Made by a program: the position numbers and the translations under genes. A model generated the notes under the pieces. That model saw only the letters and a list, made by a program, of their open reading frames with translations, made no database searches and was not told the DNA's origin. A stretch of DNA of 38,547 bases from Sideroxydans sp. GTDB lineage: Bacteria; Pseudomonadota; Gammaproteobacteria; Burkholderiales; Gallionellaceae. Within the stretch, counting starts at the first letter, position 1; every line of letters begins with the position of its first letter. The stretch is taken from NCBI GenBank assembly GCA_029850585.1, contig JARCRQ010000046.1, positions 1-38,547 of the forward strand, read 5' to 3'. Shown piece after piece: positions 1 through 28,999 of this stretch.

Positions 1-1497
1 CGCCACCGCCAATGAAATCAACATCCCCATCGAGGCGTTAATCGGAATCGGACTCATGTATGGCCCCATCAAGCCGCTCACAAACGCCATCGGTAGCAAG
101 GCGGCAATCACCGTAAAAGTCGCCAAAATGGTCGGACTGCCGACTTCATCGACGGCATCAGGAATGATTTCTGAAAGCGGTTGATGCGCGGCTAAAGCGC
201 GACGACGATGGATGTTTTCCACCACCACAATCGCGTCATCGACCAAAATTCCGATAGAGAAAATCAGCGCGAACAGCGACACGCGATTGAGCGTAAAGCC
301 CCACGCCCATGACGCGAACAAAGTCGCCGCCAAGGTCAGCATCACCGCAATGCCAACCACAAACGCCTCGCGTCGCCCCATCGTCAGCCACACCAGCAAC
401 ACTACCGCAGCAGTAGCAAACAACAGCTTTTTAATCAGCTTCATCGCTTTGTCGTTGGCTGTTTCGCCGTAGTTGCGCGTGATGCTGACATGCACATCGG
501 CGGGAATCACGCTGCCTTTTAATTCCTCGACGCGCGCTAATAATTTTTCCGCCACATCCACCGCATTCGCGCCCGGTTTTTTGCTAATCGCCACCGTCAC
601 AGCGGTGTATTCGCCCTTGGCAGTAATGCCTTTATCAGCCGCCGCTGCCCCCGCGCCCAGCCATACATAACTGCTCGGCTGATCCGCGCCATCAATCACT
701 TGCGCGATGTCGCGTAAAAATACGGGCTTACCCGCAAACACCCCCACCACCAGCTGCTGCACGTCTTGCGCATTCGTCAAAAAGCCACCCGTTTGCACCA
801 GCACTTCGCGATTGTCCTGCGCCAACATGCCTGCGTTTTGCGACACATTGGCGGCTTGCAACGCCGCGCGTACATCCTGAATGGTCAGCTGTACCGCGTT
901 CAAACTTTCGGCATTGAGCTGCACTTTGACCAAGCGTTGCGTGCCGCCCAAAGTATTCACCTCGCGCGAACCTGGCACACGTTTGAGCTCGTTTTCAATC
1001 GCGTGTGCCACTTGGGTTAGCTCAACACTGCCGCCCACCGCCTGCTCACGCCACAAGGTCAAGCCCAAAATCGGCACGTCGTCGATGCCACGAGCTTTAA
1101 TAATCGGCTGCATCACGCCTTGCGTAGGTGGCAACCAATCAGCGTGGGAATGCACCACGTCATACAGTTTCACGATGGACGGCACATGCTCCAGCCCGAC
1201 TTTGAACTGCACGGTAATCACCGCCATACCGGGTTGCGACACTGAGTAAACGTGATCCACACCCGCAATCTGCGCCAGCACTTGCTCGGCGGGGGCTGCC
1301 ACGGTTTGCGCCACATCGCGTGCCGACGCGCCAGGGTAGGCAATCATCACGTTCGCCATGGTCACATTGATTTGAGGCTCTTCCTCACGCGGCGTGACCG
1401 CGACGGCGAACACCCCCAACAACACCGCGACTAAAGCCAGCAGCGGGGTCATCGAAGAATGTAAAAAATGTTTGGCGATGCGTCCTGAAATACCCAT
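1..1497 (-). CDS. RND efflux transporter permease subunit, N-terminal half (runs off the window)
   Basis: My reading of the minus strand gives 499 uninterrupted codons from an ATG at 1497, preceded by an AGGA ribosome site, with no stop before the window edge. Residues about 15-35 form the first membrane segment, followed by a periplasmic porter region. Near the edge lies the fourth-helix motif GILVDDAIVVVEN, whose paired aspartates match the proton-relay pair of AcrB-type pumps. Full-length family members have about 1,030-1,050 residues, so this is roughly half. Members take substrates from the inner membrane or periplasm and pass them to an outer-membrane channel through an adaptor. No adaptor is adjacent here; the only one in the window is at 10397-11422. 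The VDDAIVVVEN motif fits multidrug-type (HAE) pumps better than CusA-type metal pumps. Substrate unknown. Confidence 0.9.
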   Translation of the reverse strand, partial: MGISGRIAKHFLHSSMTPLLALVAVLLGVFAVAVTPREEEPQINVTMANVMIAYPGASARDVAQTVAAPAEQVLAQIAGVDHVYSVSQPGMAVITVQFKVGLEHVPSIVKLYDVVHSHADWLPPTQGVMQPIIKARGIDDVPILGLTLWREQAVGGSVELTQVAHAIENELKRVPGSREVNTLGGTQRLVKVQLNAESLNAVQLTIQDVRAALQAANVSQNAGMLAQDNREVLVQTGGFLTNAQDVQQLVVGVFAGKPVFLRDIAQVIDGADQPSSYVWLGAGAAAADKGITAKGEYTAVTVAISKKPGANAVDVAEKLLARVEELKGSVIPADVHVSITRNYGETANDKAMKLIKKLLFATAAVVLLVWLTMGRREAFVVGIAVMLTLAATLFASWAWGFTLNRVSLFALIFSIGILVDDAIVVVENIHRRRALAAHQPLSEIIPDAVDEVGSPTILATFTVIAALLPMAFVSGLMGPYMSPIPINASMGMLISLAVA

Positions 1498-1557
1498 GAT
1501 TTTTTCCTCAGCAGTCAACTTTTTAATAGCTCACTATGATACAGTAAATTAGCATTT

Positions 1558-1594: not shown

Positions 1595-2275
1595 ATGCTA
1601 TTCAAACAACTTTTTGATAACGACTCATCCACGCTGACGTATTTATTGGCGGGCGATGATGGACAGGCAGTGCTCATTGACCCCGTGCTAGAGAAGTTAC
1701 CGCGTGATTTAGCTCTGCTGAAAACACTGGGTTTAACGCTGGATTTTGTACTCGACACGCATATTCACGCTGACCACATCACCGCCTCGAATGCTTTGAA
1801 ACACGCCACGGGTGCGACCAGCGTGATTGCCAAAAATTGCGGCGCAACGGGTTACGACAGAGTGCTTCGCGATGGTGAAATTATCCAGTTTGGTGCGGAG
1901 CAACTGCGCGTGATTGCCACGCCGGGACACACCCAAGGTAGCTTGTGTTATCTGTGGCGCGAGCGTTTGTTTTCGGGCGACACCTTGATGATTAACGCGT
2001 GCGGACGCACCGATTTTCAAAGTGGCAATGCCGAGCAGATGTATCACAGCATCACCGAAAAACTATTTACTTTGCCCGATGAAACACTGCTCTATCCCGG
2101 TCACGATTACAAAGGTCGGCGCGTGAGTTGCATAGGCGAGGAGAAATTACTTAACACCCGCATCGCGGGCAAAACGTGCGCCGAATTTGTCGCCGTGATG
2201 CAAGGCCTGAATCTCGCCACGCCGAAGCGCATCCACGAGGCGGTGCCTGCTAATTTGTTGGGCGGCACTTCATAG
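1595..2275 (+). CDS. Persulfide dioxygenase, ETHE1-like metallo-beta-lactamase-fold protein
   Basis: This 226-residue protein has the metallo-beta-lactamase fold with THIHADH at residues 55-61, TPGHT around His112, SGDT with Asp129 and PGHD with His170. The CGRTDFQ signature at 136-142 is typical of ETHE1-type enzymes, which use one iron held by two His and one Asp (here probably His56, His112, Asp129). Such enzymes oxidise glutathione persulfide to sulfite in the cytoplasm. The start has AGGAG nine bases upstream. The gene diverges from the RND permease and its 3' end overlaps the convergent metR by 6 bp. With the SQR at 8958-10229 it would complete sulfide to sulfite oxidation. A glyoxalase II function is less likely because that family has extra metal ligands and a different C-terminal domain. 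Confidence 0.9.
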   Translation: MLFKQLFDNDSSTLTYLLAGDDGQAVLIDPVLEKLPRDLALLKTLGLTLDFVLDTHIHADHITASNALKHATGATSVIAKNCGATGYDRVLRDGEIIQFGAEQLRVIATPGHTQGSLCYLWRERLFSGDTLMINACGRTDFQSGNAEQMYHSITEKLFTLPDETLLYPGHDYKGRRVSCIGEEKLLNTRIAGKTCAEFVAVMQGLNLATPKRIHEAVPANLLGGTS

Positions 2276-3190
2276 CGCAACCACCCCCGGCAAGCGGTTA
2301 AAGCTGACGCTGCGCAAGGTGGCGACAAAATCTTGGATATAGGCGGCTTGTGCCATTGCCTGATTGGTTGCCGCATACAGCTCGCCGCGTAGTCCTTGTT
2401 TGCCGATGCGTTTGCCCACCACATAGCCCGTTTGCAAGTAACTTTGCACGGCCCAAGCAGGCATGGCGGCGATACCGCGCCGACTGGCAACCAGTTGCAA
2501 AATCGCGACCGTCAGTTCGGCAGTGCGGCGTTTGGGTTCGATGCCGCGCGGTTTAAGGAATAAGCGCACTACGTCGAGCATTTCATCTGCCACGGGATAG
2601 GTAATCAGCGTTTCATCAGCAAAATCGTGCGGCGTGAGATGGTCTTTTTTGGCGAGTGGATGCAAGCAAGAGACCAATCCGACAATTTCAAATCCGAACA
2701 GGGGATGGAATACTGCTTCGCTGGATTTTTTATATTCCGAGACGATGGCTAATTCGGCCTTGCTCTCGCGCAATAAGCTCAACGGATTAGCGTGAAAGCC
2801 CGACACCAAATCTAGCTCCACTTCAGGCCAATTTTGCCGATACACATCCATGGCGGGCATCAGCCACTCAAAGCAGGTATGACATTCCACGGCGATGCGC
2901 AATTTTCCTGCGCGACCTTGCACTAAGCGCGCCACATCCCGCTCTGCCTCATCCACCAATTCTTTGATTGCTTGCGCCAAAGTATGCAAGCGTTGCCCTG
3001 CGGGCGTTAAGCGTAAGGGTTGGGTTTTGCGCTCAAACAAAGGCGTGGCGTAATGCGTCTCTAATTGCTTAATTTGGTGCGATAGCGCGGACTGGGTGAG
3101 ATGCACCCGTGTTGCTGCGCCAGACAATGTGCCCGTTTCCAGCAACGCCAAGAGCGTCTGTAAATGACGGATTTCTAAAATAGACTGCAT
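2270..3190 (-). CDS. metR: LysR-family regulator of methionine synthesis MetR
   Basis: The 306-residue protein has an N-terminal winged helix-turn-helix (residues about 5-63, including SGAATRVHLTQSALSHQIKQ) and a LysR substrate-binding domain. ECHTCFEWLMPAM at 102-114 is a hallmark of MetR, whose co-inducer is homocysteine. It is divergent from metE with a 90-bp gap, the standard MetR-MetE layout, and would activate metE and repress itself. Its stop overlaps the 3' end of the persulfide dioxygenase gene on the other strand by 6 bp. A near-consensus MetR half-site pair overlaps its own start codon (3190-3202). Identification is firm; targets other than metE are unknown. Confidence 0.92.
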   Translation of the reverse strand: MQSILEIRHLQTLLALLETGTLSGAATRVHLTQSALSHQIKQLETHYATPLFERKTQPLRLTPAGQRLHTLAQAIKELVDEAERDVARLVQGRAGKLRIAVECHTCFEWLMPAMDVYRQNWPEVELDLVSGFHANPLSLLRESKAELAIVSEYKKSSEAVFHPLFGFEIVGLVSCLHPLAKKDHLTPHDFADETLITYPVADEMLDVVRLFLKPRGIEPKRRTAELTVAILQLVASRRGIAAMPAWAVQSYLQTGYVVGKRIGKQGLRGELYAATNQAMAQAAYIQDFVATLRSVSFNRLPGVVAL

Positions 3191-3280: not shown

Positions 3281-5545
3281 ATGACGATAGCTCACACCCT
3301 AGGATTTCCGCGCATCGGCGCGCAACGCGAATTAAAACAAGCCGTCGAGGCGTATTGGCAAGGTCGCTCAAGCGAAGCCGAGTTATTGGCAACGGGTAAA
3401 AACTTGCGTGCCCGCCATTGGGCTTTGCAGCGTGAGGCAGGACTGAATTTAATTCCCGTGGGCGATTTCGCTTGGTATGACCAGATGCTCAATATGACGG
3501 CGATGTTAGGTGCTGCCCTCGCGCGTTTTGGTTTTGCAGCGCAACTGTCGCTCGCCGAATACTTTCAATTAGCACGCGGCAATGCCGCACAGCCCGCCAT
3601 GGAGATGACCAAGTGGTTCGATACCAACTACCACTACCTCGTGCCTGAATTTTCCGCCACGACCGAATTTAAGTTGAGCAGCGACTGGCTATTTGACGAG
3701 GTGAGTGAAGCGCAAGCATTGGGCGTGAACGCCAAGCCAGTGTTAATTGGCCCACTCACCTATTTGTATTTGGGTAAAGAAAAATCAGCGGGCTTAAATC
3801 GGCTGGATTTATTGCCGAAAATTTTGCCTGTGTATCAACAAATTTTGGCGCGCTTAAAAAAGCTGGGGGTGGAATGGGTGCAAATCGACGAGCCCATTTT
3901 GGCGTTAGAGCTGCCGCCTGAATGGCTGGCAGCGTTCCGCCCGACTTACGAAAAACTCGCGCTAGGCGCGCCTAACATCTTACTGGCGACGTATTTCGAA
4001 TCCGTGGTCGCACACCTAGATCTGTTGCAAGCCTTGCCTGTGGCTGGCTTACACATTGACATCGTGCGCGGCCCTGAACAGGCAACTGCATTTGCGCGTC
4101 ACTATCCAGAAAGTAAAATTTTGTCAGTCGGCATCGTCGATGGGCGCAATATCTGGCGCAACAATCTCGCCGCGTCCTTGCAAATTTTGCAGAGCTTGCA
4201 CGAGCAGTTAGGCGACCGTTTGTGGGTGGCAACCAGCTGCTCATTGCAGCATGTGCCCGTGGACTTGGCGCAAGAAACCAAGCTCGATAAAACCATTAAA
4301 AGCTGGCTGGCGTTTGCCACGCAAAAATGTGCTGAAGTGGCGACGCTGGCAAAGGGTGTGCAACATGGCACAGCCAGCATCGCGCCGCAATTAGCGCAGT
4401 CCTTAAAAGCAGGCGAGAGCCGCGTGTATTCACCGCTGATTTTTAAGCGTGAAGTGCGAGAACGAATTAAGAATTTGCAGCCTTGCGACGACCAGCGCCG
4501 TAGCCCGTTTGCCCAACGTATCGCGGCTCAACAAGCCGAGCTCAAACTGCCCGCGTATCCGACCACCACCATCGGCTCGTTCCCGCAAACTGCCGAAATT
4601 CGTCAAGCTCGCGCCGCTTTTAAGCAAGGCAAATTAAGCACGGCGGACTATCAAACTGCGATGCAAGGCGAGATCCGCCATGCCGTGCAGATGCAAGAAA
4701 AGCTGGGGCTGGATGTGTTGGTGCATGGCGAGGCAGAACGTAACGATATGGTGGAATACTTTGGCGAGCAGTTGCAGGGCTTTTGCTTTAGCGAATTTGG
4801 CTGGGTGCAAAGTTACGGCTCGCGCTGTGTGAAGCCGCCGATTATTTATGGCGACATCACGCGCGCTCACGCGATGACGGTGGAGTGGAGTCGCTACGCG
4901 CAAAGTCTGACCGACAAGCCCATGAAAGGGATGTTGACGGGGCCGATTACGATTTTGCAATGGTCATTTGTGCGCAACGATATTTTGCGTGCCGATGTGG
5001 CGATGCAAATCGCCTTGGCGATACGCGACGAGGTGCAAGATTTAGAACAAGCAGGCATCCGCATTATTCAAATCGACGAAGCCGCGCTGCGCGAAGGGTT
5101 GCCGATAAAACGGCGCGATTGGGCACATTACTTGGCTTGGGCGGTGCGCGCCTTCCGTGTCGCCACCAGCTGCGTGGCGGATACGACGCAGATACACACG
5201 CATATGTGCTACTCGGAATTCAACGATATATTGCCCGCCATTGCGGCGATGGATGCGGATGTCATCACCATTGAAACCTCGCGCTCGGATATGGAGTTGC
5301 TCGATGCGTTCAGCGCGTTCAATTATCCCAATGACATCGGCCCCGGCGTGTACGACATTCATTCGCCGCGCGTACCGAGTGCCGCCGATATGCTGCATTT
5401 GATGCACAAAGCGCGCGCCGTGATAGCCCCCGAACGGCTGTGGATTAACCCTGATTGCGGCTTGAAAACACGCGGCTGGATTGAGGTGGAAGCCGCACTG
5501 AAAAACATGGTGCAAGTCGCGCATGAACTACGCGCCGTCGCTTGA
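3281..5545 (+). CDS. metE: Cobalamin-independent methionine synthase
   Basis: At 754 residues this matches the usual MetE length (E. coli 753). It transfers a methyl group from 5-methyltetrahydrofolate-polyglutamate to homocysteine in the cytoplasm, the last step of methionine synthesis. The N-terminal barrel begins with [14 protein letters not shown]. The C-terminal catalytic barrel holds [10 protein letters not shown] (zinc His and Cys), the ITIETSRS segment with the zinc Glu, and NPDCGLKTR (second zinc Cys). The start has AGGAG seven bases upstream. The gene faces away from metR, its expected activator, and overlaps folB by 23 bp. Coupling to a folate gene is sensible because MetE uses a folate methyl donor. 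Sequence intact; no oddities seen. Confidence 0.97.
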
Positions 5546-5932: not shown

Positions 5933-6730
5933 TTACTGGGCAATTTTGTACAGTAGTGCCAACGACACCAGCACGATCAGCCCTGCGAAGGCTCGTAACA
6001 CATGCTGTTTGGGCAATCGTGCGGCGTAATGACGCGCTAGCACCATGCCGATTGCTGCCCCCGCAATAAATAGTCCCGCGCTGCTGGAAAATACGACCTG
6101 ACCGCTGCTCCATGCCGACAAAAATGCGCCACCTGATACCAGCGCGATGACCAGTAGCGACGTAGCAACGATGCTGTCTAAGCGGATATTGCTACAGCGC
6201 AACAGCGCGGGCACGATGATGAAACCGCCGCCCACACCGAGCAGTCCCGTGGTGAAACCCGTCAGCATTCCGATGGCGGTGAGCGTCAAAAAAGAACTCA
6301 CGTTCCAAACGATATAGCCTGTTGCGATTTGTATTTTGCGCACGTGCGGCAGCGTCGGTGCATCGCCATCCGCCCCGCTTGCCTTGCGCCACAAGCGTTG
6401 CGCGACGAGCAACAGCACCGCCGCAAAGCCTGCGATTAAATAGCGTTCATCGAGGCTGCGTGCCAAATGCTGACCGAGCGGCACCAGCAACATGCCCGTC
6501 GCGGCAATTAAGCTCGCGGCGCGATAACGCACCAAGCCGACCCGCCAGCCTTGCAGCGCACCGATTGCCGCCGCGCCGCCCACTGCCAGCAGCGCAATCG
6601 GGGCGGCTTGCGTCATCGACCAGCCCAACACCAAGGTCAAGGCAGGCACAGCAAGTATGCCGCCGCCCGCGCCCGTTAAACCAAGCACTAAGCCGATAAG
6701 CGCGCCGAGAGTGAGTGCCAATATCAACAT
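5933..6730 (-). CDS. TauE/SafE-family membrane exporter (probable sulfite or other sulfur-anion exporter)
   Basis: I chose the ATG at 6730, two bases after the stop of the upstream rhodanese gene, giving 265 residues; the longer reading adds 46 residues that overlap that gene. The protein has two homologous halves, each with the glycine-rich TauE signature (GLTGAGGG near residue 18 and GLLGVGGG near 170), and about eight hydrophobic segments. Family members move sulfite, sulfoacetate, taurine-derived or related anions across the inner membrane. It is the last gene of a minus-strand sulfur cluster, so export of sulfite or thiosulfate made during sulfide oxidation is the likeliest role; the substrate itself is inferred only from context. 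Confidence 0.87.
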   Translation of the reverse strand: MLILALTLGALIGLVLGLTGAGGGILAVPALTLVLGWSMTQAAPIALLAVGGAAAIGALQGWRVGLVRYRAASLIAATGMLLVPLGQHLARSLDERYLIAGFAAVLLLVAQRLWRKASGADGDAPTLPHVRKIQIATGYIVWNVSSFLTLTAIGMLTGFTTGLLGVGGGFIIVPALLRCSNIRLDSIVATSLLVIALVSGGAFLSAWSSGQVVFSSSAGLFIAGAAIGMVLARHYAARLPKQHVLRAFAGLIVLVSLALLYKIAQ

Positions 6731-6732
6731 GC

Positions 6733-7125
6733 TTAATGCTTGCCGCGCAACACTTCCAACCCCGCACCCTCCCAAGCATTCATACCGCCGCTGACATTGC
6801 TGAGTTGGCGATAACCCGCTAGACGCAACAGCTTGACCGCTTGAGCGGAGCGCATTCCCGAACGGCACATCACCGCGACAGGCTGGTCTTGGTAAGCCGC
6901 AAGGTTATTCATGCGCTGATTTAATTGTCCCAGCGGAATATGCGTCGTACGCGGCGCATGAATCAGCGCGTATTCGTGTGCATCGCGCACGTCTAGCAAT
7001 AGCCCGCCTTGTTGCTGTAAGGCTTGCGCTTGGCGGACATTGATAGTCGCGTGCCGCGCGGCTGCGCTAGGCTGATTGTGCGGGACGGTGAAAAGGGATT
7101 TTATTTTCAGCAATAGGCGTTTCAT
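6733..7125 (-). CDS. Cytoplasmic single-domain rhodanese
   Basis: The ATG at 7125 follows an AAGGA ribosome site and gives 130 residues. A basic N-terminus (MKRLLLKIKS) lacks a proper membrane segment, so a cytoplasmic or membrane-peripheral site is likely. The rhodanese domain (about 27-128) contains LLLDVRDAHEY, the persulfide-carrying Cys87 in MCRSGMRS, and SNVSGGMNAWE near the end. It would pass sulfane sulfur between carriers such as SQR product, glutathione and the dioxygenase. It is a close paralogue of the rhodanese at 7609-8007, with visible DNA-level similarity across the 3' halves, pointing to tandem duplication. It lies 19 bp after the c-type haem gene and 2 bp before the exporter. 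Confidence 0.92.
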   Translation of the reverse strand: MKRLLLKIKSLFTVPHNQPSAAARHATINVRQAQALQQQGGLLLDVRDAHEYALIHAPRTTHIPLGQLNQRMNNLAAYQDQPVAVMCRSGMRSAQAVKLLRLAGYRQLSNVSGGMNAWEGAGLEVLRGKH

Positions 7126-7144
7126 CGGTATTCCTTGAGGATAT

Positions 7145-7612
7145 TTAGGGATTGCTTTGGAGCTGCCAAGTCGCATGACAGGCAACGCATTTGGTCAGAG
7201 TGTTGGCAGTCATTTGCAAAATTTCTGGTGTGGGCGTGGTGCTTTTTGCCGCCGCCGCAATCGCTGCCATATCGCTACGCACACTCATGCCGAGCATTTT
7301 GAAATCCATCGGCAGCTTTGCCATCAATACCAGTTTTTCATCATCTGTTTCGGGCATCGCTGAAGCACTCGCCGCCTGAAAAACCAAGTCTCGATTACCT
7401 TGATTCGCGCCGTCTAAAATACCTTGCGTGCTGGATAAAAAAGTACGCATCTCAGCCAAAATCAAATTTCGCTCGGTACTTTTAAGCACAATCGCGGTGC
7501 GCCCATCTGTTCCTGCGCGCGTCTTGCCATACACAAAAAACCAAGTCAACACGGCGATGGTGATTAGCCAAAGTGCAAGTGCCAACAGCGTGAGCTTATG
7601 AGTGTTTATCAT
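7145..7612 (-). CDS. Membrane-anchored monohaem c-type cytochrome-like protein
   Basis: The ATG at 7612 overlaps the stop of the upstream rhodanese gene in an ATGA arrangement and gives 155 residues. One N-terminal membrane helix (about 7-28) anchors a mostly helical periplasmic domain. The only haem-binding motif, CVACH, is at 142-146 and close to the C-terminus, the placement seen in cytochrome c-prime. I do not recognise a named family beyond that. The preceding helices contain many methionines, and one could be an axial ligand. Sitting between two rhodanese genes suggests it takes electrons from, or senses, sulfur oxidation on the periplasmic side. That role is inference. Confidence 0.8.
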   Translation of the reverse strand: MINTHKLTLLALALWLITIAVLTWFFVYGKTRAGTDGRTAIVLKSTERNLILAEMRTFLSSTQGILDGANQGNRDLVFQAASASAMPETDDEKLVLMAKLPMDFKMLGMSVRSDMAAIAAAAKSTTPTPEILQMTANTLTKCVACHATWQLQSNP

Positions 7613-8007
7613 TTGGCGCGCACCACTTCCAACCCAGCACTTTCCCACGCATTCATGCCGCCGCTGACATTGCTGACTTGGCTATAGCCTGCGGCTTCGA
7701 GCAAGGCAACGGCTTTGGCGGAACGCTTGCCTGAGCGACACATCACAGCGATAGGCTTGTCTTTGAAGGGCGCGATTTCATTCAAGCGCGCGCTGAGTTC
7801 ACCGAGCGGAATCAGCGTCACGTTGGGCGCGTGAACTTCCGCGTATTCACTAAGCTCTCGCACGTCTAACAACAACGCACCTTGCTGCTGCATGGTTTGT
7901 GCTTGTTTGACCTCTATGCCCTGCGCGGCTTGCAGTTGATTCCAGCCGAACAATGCGAGCAAACCCGCGAGGGCTATCCATTGAATTTTATTAGCGTTAA
8001 ATTTCAT
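7609..8007 (-). CDS. Membrane-anchored or periplasmic single-domain rhodanese
   Basis: This 132-residue protein begins with a basic stretch and a hydrophobic segment (about 9-27, ending in LQAAQG), which reads as an uncleaved anchor or a signal peptide. The rhodanese domain follows with LLLDVRELSEY, catalytic Cys90 in MCRSGKRS and SNVSGGMNAWE. The domain should therefore be periplasmic, unlike its paralogue at 6733-7125. Rhodaneses move sulfane sulfur onto thiols, cyanide or sulfite. The gene begins 36 bp after the DUF3365 cytochrome gene and its stop overlaps the start of the next cytochrome-like gene, so the two are translationally coupled. Confidence 0.92.
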   Translation of the reverse strand: MKFNANKIQWIALAGLLALFGWNQLQAAQGIEVKQAQTMQQQGALLLDVRELSEYAEVHAPNVTLIPLGELSARLNEIAPFKDKPIAVMCRSGKRSAKAVALLEAAGYSQVSNVSGGMNAWESAGLEVVRAK

Positions 8008-8043
8008 GATTTTTCCTTAAAAATAGTGAGGCGATGAAGCGGT

Positions 8044-8607
8044 TTAGAGCGGGCGTTTGATGCTGACTGCGCCGCGTATTTGTCCCACGCTGTAGCCCGT
8101 TGCTTGGTCGTGTGGATAGTCGCTATGCAAACGCGCTTTGACATCATCGGGAATCGCCGTGCCGTGACACGCGACGCAGCCAGGTTGCAAGGCAATGGCT
8201 TTCATAAAACGATACGATTTTCCAGCCGGTTCTGAGACAATTTCGGAGGCTTCGATGGTCTCTGCTTTTTCGCCTTGAGCAGCGCGCGCGGCGAAATCTT
8301 GCAACTGTTTTTGTTCCCATGCGTCAGGTGTACCGAGCAACGGGTTGCGCACTTGCAAACTCACGCGCGTGAGCTTCCAGCCTGTTAGTCGTGATGCCTC
8401 ACCTGCCATGGCGGGAGCGATGTCTTTGCAAATTTGAACCGCAGCTTCGTAACCGCCTGCGCTAACCGCTTGTTGATTCGCAGCACCGAGTTTTTTCAAG
8501 AAGGGCATTGCAACAGCGCGGGCTTCGCTTTGATATTGGCTTAAATCATCCGCCAGCACGGTGCTGGTGACGAAAGCGCAAGTCATAAATAAGATGATTT
8601 TTTTCAT
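8044..8607 (-). CDS. Periplasmic DUF3365 (Tll0287-like) c-type haem protein
   Basis: The ATG at 8607 has GAGG upstream and begins a clear signal peptide (MKKIILFMTC to about residue 20, cleavage near VLA-DD). The mature domain matches DUF3365/Tll0287-like proteins, which are haem-bearing and PAS-like in fold: an N-terminal helix with CKDIAP near 60, TGWKLTRVSLQVRNP around 75-90, and CVACHG at 144-149 for covalent haem. A terminal segment with GYSVGQIRGAVSIKRPL is also characteristic. The total is 187 residues. Function is not established for the family; redox or gas sensing and electron transfer are the usual proposals. An intrinsic terminator (8634-8655) lies just upstream, so this gene may need readthrough or its own promoter. 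Confidence 0.88.
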   Translation of the reverse strand: MKKIILFMTCAFVTSTVLADDLSQYQSEARAVAMPFLKKLGAANQQAVSAGGYEAAVQICKDIAPAMAGEASRLTGWKLTRVSLQVRNPLLGTPDAWEQKQLQDFAARAAQGEKAETIEASEIVSEPAGKSYRFMKAIALQPGCVACHGTAIPDDVKARLHSDYPHDQATGYSVGQIRGAVSIKRPL

Positions 8608-8625
8608 GGTGAGATTCCTCAAGGT

Positions 8626-8655
8626 AAAAAAATGCCCGATAGCACAGCATCGGGC
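8626..8655 (-). terminator. Intrinsic terminator after the DUF2892 gene
   Basis: Read on the minus strand, GCCCGAT and ATCGGGC (8649-8655 and 8634-8640) form a 7-bp stem with an 8-base loop, followed at once by A and seven T residues. It sits 25 bp beyond the DUF2892 stop and 26 bp before the DUF3365 start, so it would end or weaken the adaptor-SQR-DUF2892 transcript. Confidence 0.82.
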
Positions 8656-8680
8656 AAAGTGTTGCGTCAACTAACTGCGA

Positions 8681-8872
8681 CTATTTTTTAATGCCGCAAG
8701 TGTTCATGCCGAGCAAGGTGTACGCAGGGCAAAAACCGATTGCGCCAGTCAACACCAACACCACACCGATGTAGCCCCACACGCCGACCACACCCGTCGC
8801 TGCCAAACCGATTAACGCCAATCCTGCAACTACGCGCAGGGCGCGGTCGATTGTTCCTGAATTACATTTCAT
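8681..8872 (-). CDS. Small DUF2892 inner-membrane protein (YgaP membrane-domain type)
   Basis: The 63-residue protein is almost wholly two hydrophobic helices (about 11-30 and 33-50) after a short MKCNSGTIDR lead. It ends in the family motif GFCPAYTLLGMNTCG with Cys48 and Cys59. DUF2892 forms the membrane part of the E. coli rhodanese YgaP, and free-standing versions are common beside rhodanese and SQR genes. A role in moving or anchoring sulfane sulfur at the membrane is an inference from those partners. AGGAG lies six bases before the ATG. It follows the SQR gene by 85 bp, a gap that contains a weak 6-bp inverted repeat (8917-8922 with 8944-8949). Confidence 0.88.
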   Translation of the reverse strand: MKCNSGTIDRALRVVAGLALIGLAATGVVGVWGYIGVVLVLTGAIGFCPAYTLLGMNTCGIKK

Positions 8873-8957
8873 AACATTCTCCTAAAGTGATTGTGGAACG
8901 GCACAATAAATCGAATCCTCGGCAATGTCTGTGATAAATCTCACCGAGGCTAATAAA

Positions 8958-10229
8958 TTATTTCAGCTTGGTAATACCCATCGCATCCATCACCAATTTT
9001 TCATACATCGGCTCGGAGGTGCCACGTTTCATTTTGCGCATGAAATACTTCTCAAAGGCAACTTTTGCGACATGCACCCACTTGCCCGACATCACCTTGG
9101 TGACATTGCGCGGTGGGATTTGTGGCAGGGCAATAAATGCCACGCCCGTGTCGCCAAAATCTGCCAAGCAAACGGTGTTCCACGTCGCTTGGCTGGTGGG
9201 TGGATTGCCCGTCAATTCGGAATGAATGTTGTGCGCCGTAGCGGTCACCATCGACTCAATCATGTAGCCTGTTTTAGGCGTGCCGACTGGCACAGGCGTT
9301 TTTTCAACAGGCGGAATCGCGATGCAGACACCGACTGCGTAAATGTTTTTGTACTTAGGATTACGCTGATGTTCGTCCACCAAAATAAAGCCGCGCGGGT
9401 TGGTCAAGCCTTCGATACCGAACACCGCGTCTATACCCTTAAAGGCAGGCAACATCATGCTGTAGGCGAACGGTAATTCGTGTTTGATTTTCTCTGCGCC
9501 TAGCTCATCGACTTCGGTCACGAACATTTTTCCCGCTTCGATTTTGGTCACTTTGGCATTGCAAATCCACTTAATCGAACGCTCGTTCATGGCTGATTCT
9601 AACAAGCCTTTTGAGTCGCCCACACCACCCAAACCGAGATGCCCGATGTAAGGCTCGGAGGTGACAAAAGTCATCGGCACTTTGTTGCGAATTTTGCGGC
9701 GACGCAGATCGGTTTCAACCGTAAACGCATATTCGTAAGCAGGGCCAAAACACGATGCGCCTTGCACCGCACCAATCACCACCGGCCCCGGATTTTTGGT
9801 AAAACCTTCCCACTCGCCATGCGATTTCATCGCGTGATCAACATCGCACACTGAATGCGTATGACCGCCGTGCGGACCTAAGCCTTCGATTTCGTCGAAC
9901 GCCAATTTAGGCCCTGTCGCAATCACCAAGAAATCATAATCAATAGTCGAACCATCATTTAATTCGAGACGATTATTGTCAGGATGCACGCGCTTCACAC
10001 CCGTAGCAATAAAGTTAATCCCTTTGCGTTCCAGATACGGGCGCACGCCAAAAGTAATGTCTTCTTTATCGCGCCACTTCACGCCCACCCAAGGATTAGA
10101 CGGGGTGAACTGGAAATTTTCGCTGTTAGAAATCACCGTGACTTTATCGCCCTTACGGATTTTTTCCTGCATCTCGTAAGCCATCGGCATCCCGCCTATC
10201 CCCGCGCCCATAATGATGATGTGTGCCAT
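8958..10229 (-). CDS. sqr: Sulfide:quinone oxidoreductase
   Basis: This 423-residue flavoprotein oxidises sulfide and passes electrons to the quinone pool while building sulfane sulfur on a cysteine. The FAD-binding GAGIGGMP follows the first strand, FLVIATGP is at about 100-107, and the end matches the amphipathic membrane-binding helices of the family (KVAFEKYFMRKMKRGTSEPMYEK). Cys128, Cys160 (GASCFGPAYEY) and Cys354 sit almost exactly where the Acidithiobacillus ferrooxidans enzyme has Cys128, Cys160 and Cys356, and overall identity to that enzyme looks high by eye. Two further cysteines, 223 and 302, are not part of that set. AGGAG precedes the start. It is second in a likely persulfide-regulated transcript, although a 140-bp palindromic element separates it from the adaptor gene. 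Confidence 0.96.
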   Translation of the reverse strand: MAHIIIMGAGIGGMPMAYEMQEKIRKGDKVTVISNSENFQFTPSNPWVGVKWRDKEDITFGVRPYLERKGINFIATGVKRVHPDNNRLELNDGSTIDYDFLVIATGPKLAFDEIEGLGPHGGHTHSVCDVDHAMKSHGEWEGFTKNPGPVVIGAVQGASCFGPAYEYAFTVETDLRRRKIRNKVPMTFVTSEPYIGHLGLGGVGDSKGLLESAMNERSIKWICNAKVTKIEAGKMFVTEVDELGAEKIKHELPFAYSMMLPAFKGIDAVFGIEGLTNPRGFILVDEHQRNPKYKNIYAVGVCIAIPPVEKTPVPVGTPKTGYMIESMVTATAHNIHSELTGNPPTSQATWNTVCLADFGDTGVAFIALPQIPPRNVTKVMSGKWVHVAKVAFEKYFMRKMKRGTSEPMYEKLVMDAMGITKLK

Positions 10230-10270
10230 TTTTTATTTCTCCTGAGTTATGTTTTTGATGCCAACTATTT

Positions 10271-10410
10271 GGGTGTCTCCAGAAATTCAAAGCTCTAAGC
10301 AAGGCTAGGCGCGAACAAAAAATTACGACGCCGCATAGTTAACTATGTAAGGAATAATTTTTTGTGAGCAACGACGTATTGCAACGAGATTTGGATTTAT
10401 GGAGATACCC
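10271..10410. repeat. Palindromic dispersed element, copy A
   Basis: The element runs from GGGTGTCTCC to GGAGATACCC. Its two halves are near-complementary over about 55 bases, leaving a centre that holds CATAGTTAACTATG, itself a small palindrome. The same sequence occurs in the opposite orientation at 16602-16742, with high identity including the central GCATAGTTnACTATGTAAGGA. It has no coding capacity, so it is a hairpin-type or MITE-like repeat. It fills the gap between the adaptor and SQR genes and overlaps the last four codons and the stop of the adaptor gene. Confidence 0.85.
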
Positions 10411-11422
10411 TACTTGTCATGCCCGCTTTTACGGGTTCGGTTGCCACTTGTTCACCTGCTGTTAACCCTGCCAAAACTTCTACGACATCTGCTTCACTAC
10501 TTTCACCTAAACGCACTTGGCGCAACTGTGTGCCGCCTTTGGCATCGACCACATACACCGCCACCACTTCGCTGCGACGCAGCACCGCGCTGGCAGGAAT
10601 CAATAGTTTTTTAGTTTTGCCCAACACAAATTGCGCGCGTACAAACATGCCGGGGTAAACGCCCGCTTGATTGGCGGGCAAATTCACGCGCACTTGCGTG
10701 CCATGCGTGCGGCTGTCCGCCAAGGGTTGCACGGTGACCGAAGCCGCTTTAATCACACGGTTTTGCGTCGGGATTTCAACCAGCACTTGCGGATTTTTGC
10801 CGATAGCGTCGAGCTGATATTGCGGAATCGACACCATCACGCGCATCTCGCTGGCATCAAAGCCCGTCATCAAAGGCTTACCTGGCATCACCGATTCACC
10901 CACCTCGACCAAACGCGCCGCCACCACGCCACCATAAGGTGCCGTGACCGTGGTGTAACCCTGCGACAAACTCGCCTGACTCGCACCCGCACGACTTGCT
11001 GCCGCCTGCCCTGCTGCCATGTCGAAATCGGCTTGCGCTTTATCGAGCGCGGCTTGGCTAATGAACTTTTGCACGAACATCACTTTGGCTCGCTCCAAAC
11101 TGACTTTGGCATTTTGCAAATTGGCTTGCGCTTGAGCTAGCTGCCCTTGGCTGCCCGCCAAGGCTTGCTCGGCTTCGCGTTCGTCGATGCGCAAAATCAC
11201 TTGCCCCGCTTTCACTTTGTCGCCCACTTCAAACAACACCGCTTTGACGCGTCCCGAAATTTGCGCCGCCACGGTGGTTTGCCGCGTCGCTTCGACCAAG
11301 CCTTCGGCACGATAGGTTTGCGCCACCTCGCTATACGCCACGGTTGCGGTTGCCAAGGGCTGCGCGGCTGCTACGCCGATACTCGCCAACAATAACGCTG
11401 CCAATACACTCATTTTTTTCAT
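10397..11422 (-). CDS. RND-type periplasmic adaptor (membrane fusion protein)
   Basis: I start at the ATG at 11422, which has GGGGTGGG upstream and opens a signal peptide (MKKMSVLAALLLASIGVAAA). An ATG 24 bases further upstream would lie only about five bases from the predicted transcription start. The 341-residue protein has the biotinyl-lipoyl-like motif VGDKVKAGQVILRIDE, a long alpha-hairpin rich in Ala, Gln and Lys (about 80-145), and a beta-barrel ending in GLTAGEQVATEPVKAG. Adaptors link an RND pump to an outer-membrane channel. The only RND permease seen is 9 kb away at 1-1497. The last four codons and the stop come from the palindromic repeat at 10271-10410, so the C-terminus may be altered. 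Confidence 0.88.
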   Translation of the reverse strand: MKKMSVLAALLLASIGVAAAQPLATATVAYSEVAQTYRAEGLVEATRQTTVAAQISGRVKAVLFEVGDKVKAGQVILRIDEREAEQALAGSQGQLAQAQANLQNAKVSLERAKVMFVQKFISQAALDKAQADFDMAAGQAAASRAGASQASLSQGYTTVTAPYGGVVAARLVEVGESVMPGKPLMTGFDASEMRVMVSIPQYQLDAIGKNPQVLVEIPTQNRVIKAASVTVQPLADSRTHGTQVRVNLPANQAGVYPGMFVRAQFVLGKTKKLLIPASAVLRRSEVVAVYVVDAKGGTQLRQVRLGESSEADVVEVLAGLTAGEQVATEPVKAGMTSRVSP

Positions 11423-11457
11423 CTTGCCCACCCCTAACATCATCAATTCAATCTATA

Positions 11458-11486
11458 AGAATATACTAATGTATAAAATAAGACAA
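11458..11486 (-). promoter_or_regulatory. Promoter of the adaptor-SQR transcript
   Basis: On the minus strand TTGTCT (11481-11486) and TATTCT (11458-11463) are separated by exactly 17 bases and precede the adaptor start by about 36 bp. The palindrome at 11462-11475 covers the spacer and the upstream end of the -10 region, the usual position for a repressor site. The -35 hexamer also lies in the U-tract of the upstream terminator. Confidence 0.6.
11462..11475. promoter_or_regulatory. Candidate operator for the ArsR/SqrR-type repressor
   Basis: TATAC-TAAT-GTATA is a perfect 5+5 inverted repeat with a 4-base centre. It is AT-rich and the right size for an ArsR-family dimer. It overlaps the predicted promoter of the sulfur transcript and lies 34 bp beyond the stop codon of the repressor gene itself. 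Binding is inferred, not seen. Confidence 0.5.
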
Positions 11487-11504
11487 ACACCTTAAAAGGT
11501 GCTT
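11477..11504 (-). terminator. Intrinsic terminator after the ArsR/SqrR-type gene
   Basis: Minus-strand reading gives AAGCACCTT and AAGGTGTTT arms centred at 11494-11495, a stem of up to nine pairs including one G-U, then a broken T-rich run (TTTGTCTTATTTT). It sits immediately after the repressor stop codon, so repressor and adaptor genes may be separate transcripts. Confidence 0.6.
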
Positions 11505-11508
11505 GTAC

Positions 11509-11814
11509 TTAGTTGGCGGTACAGAACACTTCGCGCATCAAACCCACCAGCTTCAAAGTGCGTGGATCGTTAATGCGGTAATACACAAAATTAGCTTCTT
11601 TGCGCGTCGCCAACACCTCTTTGTCGCGCAAGATTGCCAAGTGTTGCGAAATGTTGCTTTGCGTCGTGCCGACATTTTCCACGATGTCTTGCACGCTTAA
11701 TTCTTGATTGCCGAGCAAGCATAAAATTTTCAAACGCAGCGGATGCGCCATGGCTTTAATCGCTTGCGCGGCTTGTTCGATGTCTTGATCACGGTCTATT
11801 ACGGGATGTTGCAT
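11509..11814 (-). CDS. ArsR-family transcriptional repressor, SqrR/BigR type (persulfide sensing)
   Basis: I start at the ATG at 11814, with GAGG seven bases upstream; the longer reading adds 18 residues from a stem-loop-rich region. The 101-residue protein has a winged helix fold with the recognition segment TTQSNISQHLAILRD (50-64) and a wing YYRIND (78-83). Only two cysteines occur, Cys32 in LKILCLLG and Cys98 in REVFCTAN. Their 66-residue spacing equals that of Cys41-Cys107 in SqrR and Cys42-Cys108 in BigR, which sense persulfides by forming di- or polysulfide links. No ArsR-type metal box is visible. The gene heads the sulfide oxidation cluster, the expected target. Confidence 0.88.
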   Translation of the reverse strand: MQHPVIDRDQDIEQAAQAIKAMAHPLRLKILCLLGNQELSVQDIVENVGTTQSNISQHLAILRDKEVLATRKEANFVYYRINDPRTLKLVGLMREVFCTAN

Positions 11815-22417: not shown

Positions 22418-22439
22418 AATAGTTCTAACTAGAACTATT
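22418..22439. repeat. Perfect 9-bp inverted repeat over the SPFH stop codon
   Basis: AATAGTTCT and AGAACTATT with an AACT loop form a hairpin that includes the stop codon of the SPFH gene. It lies beside the terminator at 22378-22405 and may strengthen it or stabilise the 3' end of the mRNA. Confidence 0.5.
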
Positions 22440-23274
22440 TGTTCACATTGATAAACGGTATGGTGCCGCCTGTCACATTGGGCAAATGTCCATCCCATTT
22501 TTCTAACGCGAGGCGTTGATTTTCGACTTCGCGCAGACGAATCATTTCTGGCGTGACTTGCTGACGTTGCAACGATAACGACTCGGCTTCGGCTTTGGCA
22601 CTTGCCACCTTTTGTTTCGCTTCAACCTCAATGCGCTGCAAGTCGCGTTCAGCTTTTAGCTTCAGTTGCTCGGCGGTAGTTTTCGCTTCAATCGCCTGAT
22701 TAAAGCTAGGCGAAAATTGGAAATTCACAATCGAAAATTCATCAATCGCGATGCCGTGGCGGGTCATCCGTTCTTTCAATGCCGCGCTAATCATGTCGCG
22801 CACTTCGGCACGTTTACTAATCAATTCTTCGGCGGTGTATTTCGCGGTCGTGGCTTTTACCGCTTCTTGCACGGCTGGAATAATAATGCGGTCGCCCACC
22901 GTAGAAAGATTACCAATCGCCTGAAAGGTCTCGGCGACGCGTTCAGGAATCAGATGGAAATTCAGCGCGATTTTGATATGCACTTGCTGCATATCTTTCG
23001 ATGCCGAATCACCATCGCCCTCGCCCTTTTGTATCTGCACGTTAATCTCGTGAATAGCTTGCATGACGGGAATGCGCAGGTGCAAACCCTCCCCTAATAC
23101 AATTTGATCCACCTTGCCAAAGTTCGTAATCACGCCACGATTCCCCGCGTTAATCACCACGAACGGGTTAATCAGGGGCAGCACAATAAACACCAACACG
23201 GCAGCCAACACGAGCCACTTCAAGCCACCGAAACTGCGCAATTTATCGTTAAAACTATTTTCAAAACCAGCCAT
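22435..23274 (-). CDS. Prohibitin/SPFH-domain membrane protein
   Basis: The 279-residue protein has a single N-terminal membrane helix (about 18-38), an SPFH domain beginning with VINAGNRGVITNFGKV and running to about 205, and a charged coiled coil (AEQLKLKAERDLQRIEVEAKQKVASAKAEAES, shown here only as the region about 208-240). It ends in a short segment with PNVTGGTIPFINVNK. Length and order fit bacterial prohibitins rather than HflC or HflK, which pair with each other. Such proteins form ring-like scaffolds around membrane proteases such as FtsH. AAGGAG precedes the start. It follows cysK by 26 bp in the same direction. Confidence 0.9.
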   Translation of the reverse strand: MAGFENSFNDKLRSFGGLKWLVLAAVLVFIVLPLINPFVVINAGNRGVITNFGKVDQIVLGEGLHLRIPVMQAIHEINVQIQKGEGDGDSASKDMQQVHIKIALNFHLIPERVAETFQAIGNLSTVGDRIIIPAVQEAVKATTAKYTAEELISKRAEVRDMISAALKERMTRHGIAIDEFSIVNFQFSPSFNQAIEAKTTAEQLKLKAERDLQRIEVEAKQKVASAKAEAESLSLQRQQVTPEMIRLREVENQRLALEKWDGHLPNVTGGTIPFINVNK

Positions 23275-23300
23275 ATTGTTCTCCTTGAGTGAGTCAAAAT

Positions 23301-24272
23301 TTACAACGCCATACCCTTTTCATCAAACAAGCCATCAAATAACACCGTCGTTAAATATCGTTCGCCTGAATCAGGCAAAATTACCACGATTGTTTTGCCT
23401 GCATGTTCAGGACGCTTTGCCAAGCGCACGGCTGCCGCAACAGCGGCACCACACGAAATGCCGCACAAAATACCTTCCTCTTTTGCCATACGCCGCGCGT
23501 ATTGCACCGCTTCTTCATTGCTCACTTGTTCGATTTGATCGACCAGCGACATATCCAAGTTATTTGGCACAAAGCCCGCGCCTATGCCTTGAATTTTATG
23601 CGGCGCGGGTTTAATCGGCTCACCCGCACGGAGCTGCGAAATAACGGGGCTGGCAGATGGTTCGACGGCGACAGAAAGCAATTTAGCATTGTGTTTTTTA
23701 AGGTAGCGCGACACGCCCGTAAGCGTGCCGCCCGTGCCGACACCCGCAACAAAAATATCGACTTTGCCAGCGGTGTCCGTCCAAATTTCAGGGCCAGTAG
23801 TGCGTTCGTGAATGGCAGGGTTAGCGGGGTTATTAAACTGCTGCAACAACACATATTTACTATCCGACGCGGCGATTTCTTCGGCTTTGGCGATTGCGCC
23901 ACTCATGCCTTTTGCGCCCTCAGTCAGCACTAACTTCGCGCCATACACCGCTAACAATTTACGACGTTCGATGCTCATCGTTTCTGGCATGGTCAGCGTC
24001 AGCGGAATACCGCGCGCGGCGGCGACAAACGCCAAAGCAATGCCCGTGTTACCGCTGGTGGGTTCGACGATTTCCTTGCCTGCGCCCAACACGCCGCGCT
24101 GCTCGGCATCCCAAATCATTGCCGCACCGATACGACACTTCACCGAATAAGCGGGATTGCGACCTTCAATTTTCGCCAAGATAGTCGCGCCTGCACCATC
24201 GCTGACGCGATTCAAACGCACCAAAGGCGTGTTGCCGATAGATAAAGAATTGTCGCTAAACCAGTTGGACAT
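23301..24272 (-). CDS. cysK: Cysteine synthase (O-acetylserine sulfhydrylase)
   Basis: The ATG at 24272 has GAGGAGGGG upstream and yields 323 residues; the longer frame adds 23 unsupported residues. The enzyme joins sulfide to O-acetylserine to make cysteine in the cytoplasm. Lys45 in [14 protein letters not shown] carries pyridoxal phosphate, with [12 protein letters not shown] at about 73-84 binding substrate and [14 protein letters not shown] binding the cofactor phosphate. The SVKCRIG form and length fit CysK rather than CysM. The gene takes up sulfide assimilatively, complementing the dissimilatory cluster at 6-11 kb. It probably shares a transcript with the SPFH gene. Its promoter was not clearly identified. 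Confidence 0.96.
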
Positions 24273-24375
24273 GTCGCCCCTCCTCACAAAATTTTCACAA
24301 AAAAAGCAGCGGTGATTTTTACACAGGCGAGGATTTTTCACCCAGCTTTTTTAGCTCGCCAGTAAATGCTGGACG

Positions 24376-24403
24376 AAAAAAAACCGAGCGAACTCGGTTT
24401 TTT
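24376..24403. terminator. Bidirectional intrinsic terminator after rplQ
   Basis: Eight A residues, CCGAG, loop CGAA, CTCGG and six T residues (24376-24403) end the S10-spc-alpha transcript, 21 bp beyond the rplQ stop. Stem and loop nearly repeat the terminator at 17626-17653. Confidence 0.9.
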
Positions 24404-24424
24404 GTACCAGTGCAATCTCGCTAA

Positions 24425-24811
24425 TTACTCAGCATCTACTACAGTTGCATCGGCTGGGCGATCCATCAATTCGATCAATGCCATCGGAGCGTTGTCGCCC
24501 TGACGGAAACCGAATTTCAACACGCGTAAGTAACCGCCATTGCGTGTTGCGTAACGAGGACCGAGTTCATCAAACAACTTCGTTACCATTTCGCGATCAC
24601 GCAAACGCGCAAAAGCCAAACGACGATTTGCCAAACTAGGCGTTTTGCCCAGTGTCAGGATCGGTTCTGCCACACGGCGCAGTTCTTTAGCCTTAGGCAA
24701 AGTTGTTTTAATCAGCTCGTGACGCAACAGAGAAACTGTCATGTTGCGGAACATAGCCAAACGATGGCTGCTGGTACGATTGAGTTTTCTTAAACCTGAA
24801 CGATGACGCAT
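24425..24811 (-). CDS. rplQ: Large-subunit ribosomal protein L17
   Basis: At 128 residues it opens with [20 protein letters not shown], the conserved basic start of L17, and carries [17 protein letters not shown] in the body. The C-terminus ends in the acidic DATVVDAE, an extension seen in many proteobacteria. L17 sits near the exit of the peptide tunnel. It is the last gene of the ribosomal series, 36 bp after rpoA, and is followed by a strong terminator. Confidence 0.98.
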
Positions 24812-24847
24812 GATGTGCCTTTCTTACTTCTTAAGTTGCCAGACTGC

Positions 24848-25816: not shown

Positions 25817-25833
25817 TCGCTACTCCGCGTGGA

Positions 25834-26463: not shown

Positions 26464-26480
26464 GATGTACTCCTAGTAAA

Positions 26481-26870
26481 TTAGATACGACGCTTTTTAG
26501 GCGGACGGCAACCGTTGTGCGGCACCGGGGTAATATCAGAAATGCTAGTGATCTTAAAACCAGCAGCATTCAACGCACGCACAGCGGATTCACGGCCAGG
26601 GCCAGGTCCTTTGATGCGCACTTCAATATTCTTAACGCCACATTCAGCAGCAGCTTTACCCACAACTTCAGCCGCAATTTGAGCTGCAAAAGGAGTGCTT
26701 TTACGCGAACCTTTGAAGCCTTGTGCGCCGCTAGTTGACCAAGCCAAAGTATTGCCTTGACGATCAGTAATGGTAACGATGGTGTTGTTAAATGATGCGT
26801 GAACGTGTGCAATTGCTTCAGCAACGTTCTTTTTAACTTTTTTGCGTACTTTCGTAGCTGGCTTAGCCAT
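26481..26870 (-). CDS. rpsK: Small-subunit ribosomal protein S11
   Basis: The 129-residue protein has the family segments [16 protein letters not shown] (about 29-44), [16 protein letters not shown] and the C-terminal [13 protein letters not shown]. It binds the 30S platform beside the mRNA exit channel together with S18 and S21. The gene is 29 bp after rpsM and 17 bp before rpsD. Normal length; AGGAATAG-like ribosome site upstream. Confidence 0.99.
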
Positions 26871-26899
26871 AATCTATTCCTCTAATGCGTTATAGCGAA

Positions 26900-27265: not shown

Positions 27266-27294
27266 GCAGCTACCCTATATTTGAAAAAACGAAG

Positions 27295-27300: not shown

Positions 27301-27324
27301 ACACCGAAATTGGCTAACGCCGAA

Positions 27325-27438: not shown

Positions 27439-27456
27439 TATTTTCTCCTAACTGAA

Positions 27457-28991: not shown

Positions 28992-28999
28992 GGCGTTCC

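What the first reader, a model, noticed from the sequence alone, without database searches (positions are those of the whole stretch)
11458..11814. SqrR/BigR-type persulfide sensor next to a promoter-overlapping palindrome
The 101-residue ArsR-type protein has exactly two cysteines, Cys32 and Cys98, 66 residues apart, the same spacing as the sensing pairs of SqrR (41/107) and BigR (42/108). Just past its terminator, a perfect TATAC-TAAT-GTATA palindrome covers the spacer and -10 edge of a well-spaced promoter (TTGTCT-17-TATTCT) leading into the adaptor-SQR genes. This predicts persulfide-controlled sulfide oxidation. The operator half-site is not one I can match to a published box.
Basis: partly seen in the sequence, partly recalled or inferred. 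Interest (0 to 1): 0.7.

Follow-up and report, generated by a model that had tools for sequence, protein, structure and literature searches.

The report
Persulfide-type repressor with efflux-pump operator
A bacterial gene switch that looks like a sulfur sensor sits beside sulfide-oxidising and efflux-pump genes; the DNA mark it probably binds is a different one from that first proposed, and the same mark recurs beside such pump genes in many related bacteria.

Summary
The two-cysteine ArsR protein is real and looks like a sulfane-sulfur sensor of the HlyU/SqrR/BigR class: Cys32 lies in helix 2, Cys98 at the end of helix 5, both invariant in 51 of 51 aligned sequences. Relatives point to another operator on the same promoter: ATTAG-N6-CTWAT at 11455-11470, overlapping the -10 box. 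In 80 named relatives this dyad follows arsR in 26 of 36 loci with an RND-adaptor gene and in 0 of 44 without (Fisher p = 3e-13; loci are related). The constant neighbour is an RND adaptor and pump; SQR is less constant (1 of those 36). Here the unit is split: adaptor and SQR lie beside arsR, while the pump lies at 1-1518 opposite a persulfide-dioxygenase gene, with the assembly's only other perfect dyad (1548-1563) between them. Best reading: a persulfide-released repressor of an efflux pump and, in this genome, of sulfide-oxidation genes. Persulfide sensing is inferred from homology; nothing was tested biochemically. The box shares the 4-8-4 geometry of the SqrR/YgaV box but not its letters. 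The pump's substrate is unknown.

The parts
11509..11814 (-). ArsR-family repressor, 101 aa, Cys32/Cys98 (gene including stop codon)
   Evidence: HTH_5 50.1 bits; HTH_metalloreg subfamily cut-off met; AF2 model mean pLDDT 89.6 with Cys32 in helix 25-34 and Cys98 one residue after helix 84-97
11483..11506 (-). terminator-like hairpin after arsR; the -35 of the next promoter starts inside its 3' arm
11481..11486 (-). -35 element TTGTCT
   Evidence: read; TTG 15-18 bases before the dyad in 18 of 20 and 17 of 26 relatives
11458..11463 (-). -10 element TATTCT, inside the operator dyad
   Evidence: relatives
11455..11470 (-). predicted operator, minus strand ATTAG-TATATT-CTTAT
   Evidence: one of two perfect ATWAGNNWWNNCTWAT sites in the 1.97-Mb assembly; conserved dyad in relatives
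10397..11422 (-). RND periplasmic adaptor (MFP); ATG at 11422, ORF open to 11446
   Evidence: TIGR01730 RND_mfp 211 bits, over cut-off
8958..10229 (-). sulfide:quinone oxidoreductase
   Evidence: phmmer 1.4e-171 to solved sulfide-quinone reductases such as 3sz0; no NCBIfam SQR cut-off met (best 106 of 525 bits)
8044..8670 (-). Tll0287-like protein
   Evidence: PF11845
7609..8007 (-). rhodanese, N-terminus signal-like by eye
   Evidence: PF00581
7145..7648 (-). unassigned protein with one CVACH (CxxCH) motif, possibly c-type cytochrome
   Evidence: no family; motif read
6733..7185 (-). second rhodanese
   Evidence: PF00581
5933..6868 (-). TauE/SafE-type exporter
   Evidence: PF01925 132 bits
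1548..1563 (.). second predicted operator, + strand ATTAG-CATTTT-CTTAT, in the divergent gap
   Evidence: the only other perfect site in the assembly
1..1518 (-). RND pump permease, cut by the contig end (probable ATG at 1497)
   Evidence: PF00873 277 bits; 82-88% identical to the RND gene behind dyad and adaptor in 18 same-genus loci
1595..2275 (+). ETHE1-type persulfide dioxygenase (PDO)
   Evidence: phmmer 5.3e-74 to 4ysb and 2.2e-60 to ETHE1 4chl; no NCBIfam cut-off met

Best explanation
The ArsR protein is a repressor of the two-cysteine, sulfane-sulfur-sensing class. The reduced dimer binds ATTAG-N6-CTWAT and covers the -10 box of the adaptor-SQR promoter and the gap between the RND pump and the PDO gene. 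When persulfides accumulate, Cys32 and Cys98 are bridged by sulfur, the dimer leaves the DNA, and the cell makes the adaptor, SQR, rhodaneses, a TauE exporter and the RND pump, perhaps also PDO. Shown by sequence: the Cys pair, the dyad, its conservation with the adaptor-pump unit, its overlap with the promoter, and the split arrangement here. Inferred: that this protein binds this dyad, that persulfide is the signal, that binding represses, that 5933-11422 is one operon, and which gene the second dyad serves.
For: Cys32 and Cys98 invariant in 51 of 51 aligned sequences, that is the window and 50 of the 80 named loci; spacing 66 found by script in 79 of 80, the 80th (L208) being a wrong-frame hit of the script; L208 is among the rows. 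Sequence and fold nearest to HlyU, with SqrR, NolR and BigR among the best. Dyad in 26 of 36 adaptor loci and 0 of 44 others; best dyad score at least 9 of 10 in 31 of 36 adaptor loci, 0 of 43 others and 0.9% of shuffles. The N6 spacer varies while both half-sites hold, and 5 of 8 loci whose pumps are only distant relatives (RND 40-42% identity) still carry the strict dyad. Genus scan with an 18-letter pattern, up to one mismatch: 42 sites in 33 of 41 genomes against 1 site for the reversed pattern; the nearest recognised gene is the adaptor at 25, a rhodanese at 8, a TolC-type gene at 3. Only two perfect ATWAGNNWWNNCTWAT sites in the own assembly, both here. Chance of such a dyad in the two gaps 0.16% and 0.12% by shuffling. 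Persulfide sensing by this class: PMC10509353 and PMC12423496 (passages and one section).
Against: No binding or reactivity data. 10 of 36 adaptor loci lack the strict dyad (8 keep a degenerate one with 15-18 of 22 letters, 2 have none). In the genus, 15 of 21 orthologue loci have a site within 400 bp behind arsR, 6 do not or could not be read. Own-genome sites with up to one mismatch are no more frequent than the reversed control (37 against 45), so the count of two perfect sites is not itself significant; their position is. PDO loci of 6 relatives: 0 of 6 have a dyad upstream. SQR accompanies the unit in only 1 of 36 adaptor loci of the fairer set, and of the 19 SQR copies lying away from arsR (L115-L133) one has a dyad; this weakens the tie to sulfide oxidation. 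The own genome has no soxB or dsrA match (the 14 control genomes gave no match over the cut-off either, so there was no positive control).
Confidence: 0.68

Rival explanations
1. The first reader's palindrome TATACTAATGTATA is the operator, with a box special to this genome.
For: Perfect 5-4-5 palindrome over the spacer and -10 edge; none in 100 shuffles of the window.
Against: Absent from all 30 other loci tested; any perfect 5-4-5 palindrome has a 9.6% chance in this spacer; the second site at 1548 does not contain it; the conserved dyad overlaps it and explains its ATTAG part.
Confidence: 0.04
2. The dyad and protein belong together, but the signal is not persulfide: a thiol-oxidation or pump-substrate signal, the pump being an ordinary drug or stress pump.
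For: The most constant target is an RND pump that resembles multidrug pumps; SQR is absent from the unit in 12 of 20 picked loci and in 35 of 36 adaptor loci of the fairer set; two-cysteine ArsR proteins of another cluster sense peroxide (PMC10509353, passages).
Against: Sites also stand before rhodaneses (8 of 42 genus sites), and here the genes include SQR, PDO, rhodaneses and TauE; the Cys pair lies in helices 2 and 5 as in the persulfide cluster, not in helix 3 as in the peroxide sensor RexT.
Confidence: 0.19
3. A metal or metalloid sensor controlling an efflux pump.
For: The generic HTH_metalloreg subfamily model is met; some RND pumps export metals.
Against: No Cys in helix 3 (41-48) and no His in helix 5 (84-97) of the window protein; the RND sequence has a DDAIVVVEN motif that I recall as typical of multidrug-type pumps.
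Confidence: 0.04
4. The dyad is the site of another regulator that happens to be near arsR.
For: No binding data; genomes of the genus hold other ArsR paralogues; G001 has a site but no close orthologue; in six of 21 genus loci no site was found behind arsR.
Against: In 80 named relatives the dyad is found behind arsR in 26 of 36 adaptor loci; its 4-8-4 geometry is that of the SqrR/YgaV box.
Confidence: 0.05

Closest known systems
HlyU (Vibrio), persulfide-responsive ArsR protein
   Same: Best sequence and fold match (phmmer 1.4e-17; Foldseek 1e-8); two cysteines at the same places; release by persulfides shown for HlyU (PMC10509353, passages)
   Different: HlyU activates hemolysin from a 17-bp site, TAATTCAGACTAAATTA, 173 bp upstream (PMC4330345, passages); here a dyad overlaps the -10, which predicts repression
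SqrR (Rhodobacter capsulatus) and YgaV (E. coli)
   Same: Cys pair, fold, and box geometry: ATTC-N8-GAAT (PMC9774250, passages) against ATTA-N8-TTAT here and mostly ATTA-N8-TAAT in relatives; YgaV also binds over the promoter of its operon; in two genomes of the genus arsR is followed by a YgaP-like membrane gene by similarity
   Different: Inner letter of each half-site; main neighbour an RND unit
BigR (Xylella, Agrobacterium, Acinetobacter)
   Same: Two-cysteine sensor with sulfur-oxidation targets, among them a dioxygenase (PMC5823870, abstract and one passage; PMC7315123, passages)
   Different: NCBIfam BigR model not met (75.9 against 155 bits); 27-29% identity in the fold alignments
NolR (Sinorhizobium)
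   Same: Fold (4omz, 4omy). The NolR box is recalled as (A/T)TTAG-N9-A(T/A), which shares the ATTAG half-site; the paper was not held
   Different: Symbiosis targets; the box spacing as recalled differs

Membership tests
Two-cysteine sulfane-sulfur-sensing ArsR proteins (SSN cluster 4 of PMC10509353) | ArsR winged-helix fold | tested here: met
   Pfam HTH_5 over cut-off; AF2 model and Foldseek
Two-cysteine sulfane-sulfur-sensing ArsR proteins (SSN cluster 4 of PMC10509353) | One Cys in helix 2 and one in helix 5 | tested here: met
   Cys32 in helix 25-34, Cys98 one residue past helix 84-97; invariant in 51 of 51
Two-cysteine sulfane-sulfur-sensing ArsR proteins (SSN cluster 4 of PMC10509353) | No CxC metal site in helix 3 and no helix-5 metal ligands | tested here: met
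   read from sequence, alignment and model
Two-cysteine sulfane-sulfur-sensing ArsR proteins (SSN cluster 4 of PMC10509353) | Placement in that similarity network | not tested
   no network or tree was made; only pairwise and fold matches
Two-cysteine sulfane-sulfur-sensing ArsR proteins (SSN cluster 4 of PMC10509353) | Polysulfide bridge on treatment with persulfide and loss of DNA binding | not testable with these tools
   needs mass spectrometry and a binding assay
BigR equivalog (NF040642) | Curated score cut-off 155 bits | tested here: not met
   75.9 bits
SqrR/YgaV operator | ATTC-N8-GAAT | tested here: not met
   same 4-8-4 geometry but ATTA-N8-TTAT in the window and mostly ATTA-N8-TAAT in relatives
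Persulfide dioxygenase (ETHE1 type), gene 1595-2275 | Sequence relation to solved persulfide dioxygenases | tested here: met
   ETHE1 4chl 2.2e-60, 4ysb 5.3e-74; NCBIfam cut-offs not met; activity not tested

The most novel reading that the evidence does not exclude
In Gallionella-like iron oxidisers and in Thiobacillus-type sulfur oxidisers, a persulfide sensor controls a dedicated tripartite RND pump through the ATTAG-N6-CTAAT box, and the pump exports sulfane sulfur (polysulfide, persulfide or elemental sulfur) made by SQR and other enzymes: a missing exit route for sulfur, worked together with PDO, rhodaneses and TauE.
Probability: 0.14. Interest if true: 0.75.

Novelty: new member of a known kind. 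Interest (0 to 1): 0.45.

Why it matters
The regulator class is known, and a 2025 paper already lists RND pumps among neighbours of such regulators (PMC12423496, section 2.1 read). Not found in print in the searches (an open-access library only) is this conserved operator, which lets the regulon be read off genomes: adaptor and pump, in some genomes an outer-membrane channel, rhodaneses or SQR. It makes the question of what such a pump exports directly testable, and it shows a unit that split while both halves carry the box.

Tried and rejected
PDO as an ancestral target: 0 of 6 relatives' PDO loci have a dyad in the upstream sequence held (158-300 bases, which completes, where five of them were not placed), so the second dyad probably belongs to the pump. 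SQR as the core target: of 30 SQR loci (L104-L114) lie behind the adaptor; of the other 19, taken as stand-alone because they lie elsewhere than the arsR locus, only L130 has a dyad within 300 bp; in the 80 named loci SQR was seen in 1. Autoregulation: a site of the form ATAAG/ATCAG-N6-CTAAT or CTGAT lies 80-110 bp before arsR in L142, L145, L146, L174 and L176, and one at 166 bp in L158; in the window the best upstream match is weak (14 of 22 letters). Sox and reverse-Dsr oxidation in the own genome: no match (no positive control among the 14 control genomes). In one search the RND reference was translated in a wrong frame, so its 'RND' labels are void; one search repeats the work in the right frame. 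Of 42 genus sites, 2 (G022:C195, G001:C17) stand before nothing I recognised, 1 runs into a contig end (G051:C104), 1 (G014) before a short ORF that I read as DUF302-like ahead of the adaptor (a 38-aa piece gave no Pfam hit), 1 (G003:C57) before a YgaP-like membrane gene and 1 (G002) near an OsmC-like gene.

Full report
What is in the window. The minus strand from 11814 carries arsR (101 aa, Cys32 and Cys98), a terminator-like hairpin (11483-11506), a promoter and an RND adaptor (MFP) gene, then SQR, a Tll0287-like protein, a rhodanese, a CxxCH protein, a second rhodanese and a TauE exporter. SQR is a clear relative of solved sulfide-quinone reductases (3sz0, 1.4e-171). A gene read as gpmI is divergent to arsR. 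No RND permease follows the adaptor here. One lies at 1-1518, cut by the contig end, divergent from a persulfide-dioxygenase gene (1595-2275; ETHE1 4chl 2.2e-60).

The sensor. The best sequence matches among solved proteins are HlyU, then BigR, SqrR and NolR; a model with mean pLDDT 89.6 matches HlyU, SqrR and NolR best. Cys32 is in the second helix and Cys98 directly after the fifth, the arrangement given for the persulfide cluster of ArsR proteins (PMC10509353, passages). Both are invariant in 51 of 51 sequences (the window and 50 of 80 named loci); a script found the 66 spacing in 79 of 80, the last (L208) being a wrong-frame hit and included. The protein is not a BigR equivalog by NCBI's cut-off (75.9 against 155 bits) but fits the wider class by the features tested. 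Helix 3 has no cysteine and helix 5 no histidine.

The operator. In the same genus, 15 of 21 orthologue loci (L003-L023) have within 400 bp behind arsR a site matching AATATTAGTATATTCTAATATT at 15 or more of 22 letters; five have none and one could not be read. The window has TACATTAGTATATTCTTATAGA. In 80 named relatives (titles include Gallionella, Sideroxydans, Sulfuricella, Thiobacillus, Hydrogenophilus, Thiohalobacter and Sedimenticola) the strict dyad lies within 400 bp downstream of arsR in 26 of 36 loci that have an adaptor gene and in 0 of 44 that do not (p = 3.3e-13). A dyad score of 9 or 10 of 10 letters is reached in 31 of 36 adaptor loci, 0 of 43 others, and 0.9% of dinucleotide shuffles. 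The spacer letters vary while ATTAG and CTAAT stay. A TTG starts 15-18 bases before the dyad in 18 of 20 genus and order loci and 17 of 26 named ones, so the dyad overlaps the likely -10, as expected for a repressor.

The targets. The genus scan, up to one mismatch, found 42 sites in 33 of 41 genomes against 1 for the reversed pattern. The nearest recognised gene is the adaptor at 25, a rhodanese at 8 (Pfam checked for one), a TolC-type channel at 3 (Pfam OEP for the one tested), and other or none at 6. In 20 loci fetched because they carried the site or an orthologue, all 20 have adaptor then RND pump, 8 with SQR between them; arsR itself is in 17 of the 20 stretches. The RND gene of the 18 same-genus loci is 82-88% identical to the window's pump fragment. 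In the fairer set of 80, 35 of 36 adaptor loci have an RND gene (in the other the contig ends soon after the adaptor), only 1 has SQR, and in 8 of the 36 adaptor and pump are distant relatives (30-33% and 40-42%), 5 of them with the strict dyad. So the box follows the pump unit more than SQR. In this genome the unit is split. Of perfect ATWAGNNWWNNCTWAT sites the 1.97-Mb assembly has two, both here: one before adaptor-SQR and one between pump and PDO; sites with up to one mismatch are no more frequent than the reversed control (37 against 45). By shuffling, a dyad has a 0.16% and 0.12% chance in these two gaps. 0 of 6 relatives' PDO loci have a dyad, which points to the pump as the owner of the second site; whether PDO is also controlled is open.

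Mechanism. Shown: the anatomy above. Inferred from the class (PMC10509353, PMC9774250 passages; PMC12423496 passages and section 2.1): reduced dimer bound to DNA; sulfane sulfur bridges the cysteines; release; transcription of adaptor, SQR, rhodaneses, TauE, pump and perhaps PDO. What the pump exports is unknown. By sequence it is nearest to multidrug-type pumps, so an ordinary stress pump, with or without a persulfide signal, is a live rival.

Relation to what is known. The deduced SqrR box ATTC-N8-GAAT (PMC9774250, passages) and this box, mostly ATTA-N8-TAAT in relatives, share the 4-8-4 layout and differ by one letter per half-site. The 2025 paper (section 2.1 read) names RND pumps, SQR, PDO, rhodaneses and TauE as neighbours of two-cysteine ArsR regulators, so the type of regulon is foreseen; the operator and its link to the pump were not found in the searches. 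Primary papers on NolR, SqrR and BigR were not held.

Noticed in passing
window 22435-37820: Of ten proteins tested here, six are ribosomal proteins, one SecY, one RNA polymerase alpha, one a PLP enzyme and one a Band-7 protein: an ordinary ribosomal cluster and neighbours.
   Followed up: partly
L142, L145, L146, L174, L176 about 80-110 bp upstream of arsR: A second dyad-like site (ATAAG/ATCAG-N6-CTAAT or CTGAT) suggests autoregulation in some relatives; the window has only a weak match there.
   Followed up: partly
L062, L070, L076: The same box stands before a TolC-type outer-membrane gene in three genomes of the genus, so the whole tripartite pump may be in one regulon there.
   Followed up: yes
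L010, L018, L019, L073: In some relatives arsR is followed by a YgaP-like membrane gene and not by the adaptor, which recalls the E. coli ygaVP pair; confirmed by similarity in L010 and L073, the others read from DNA.
   Followed up: partly
window 3281-5545 and 2270-3190: A gene read as metE with a divergent LysR-type gene lies between the PDO gene and the sqr genes; the LysR family was confirmed, metE only read from the translation.
   Followed up: no
loci such as L151, L153, L163, L201: The same arsR clade without adaptor and pump has a rhodanese-like gene nearby and no dyad within 400 bp downstream; its operator there is unknown.
   Followed up: no
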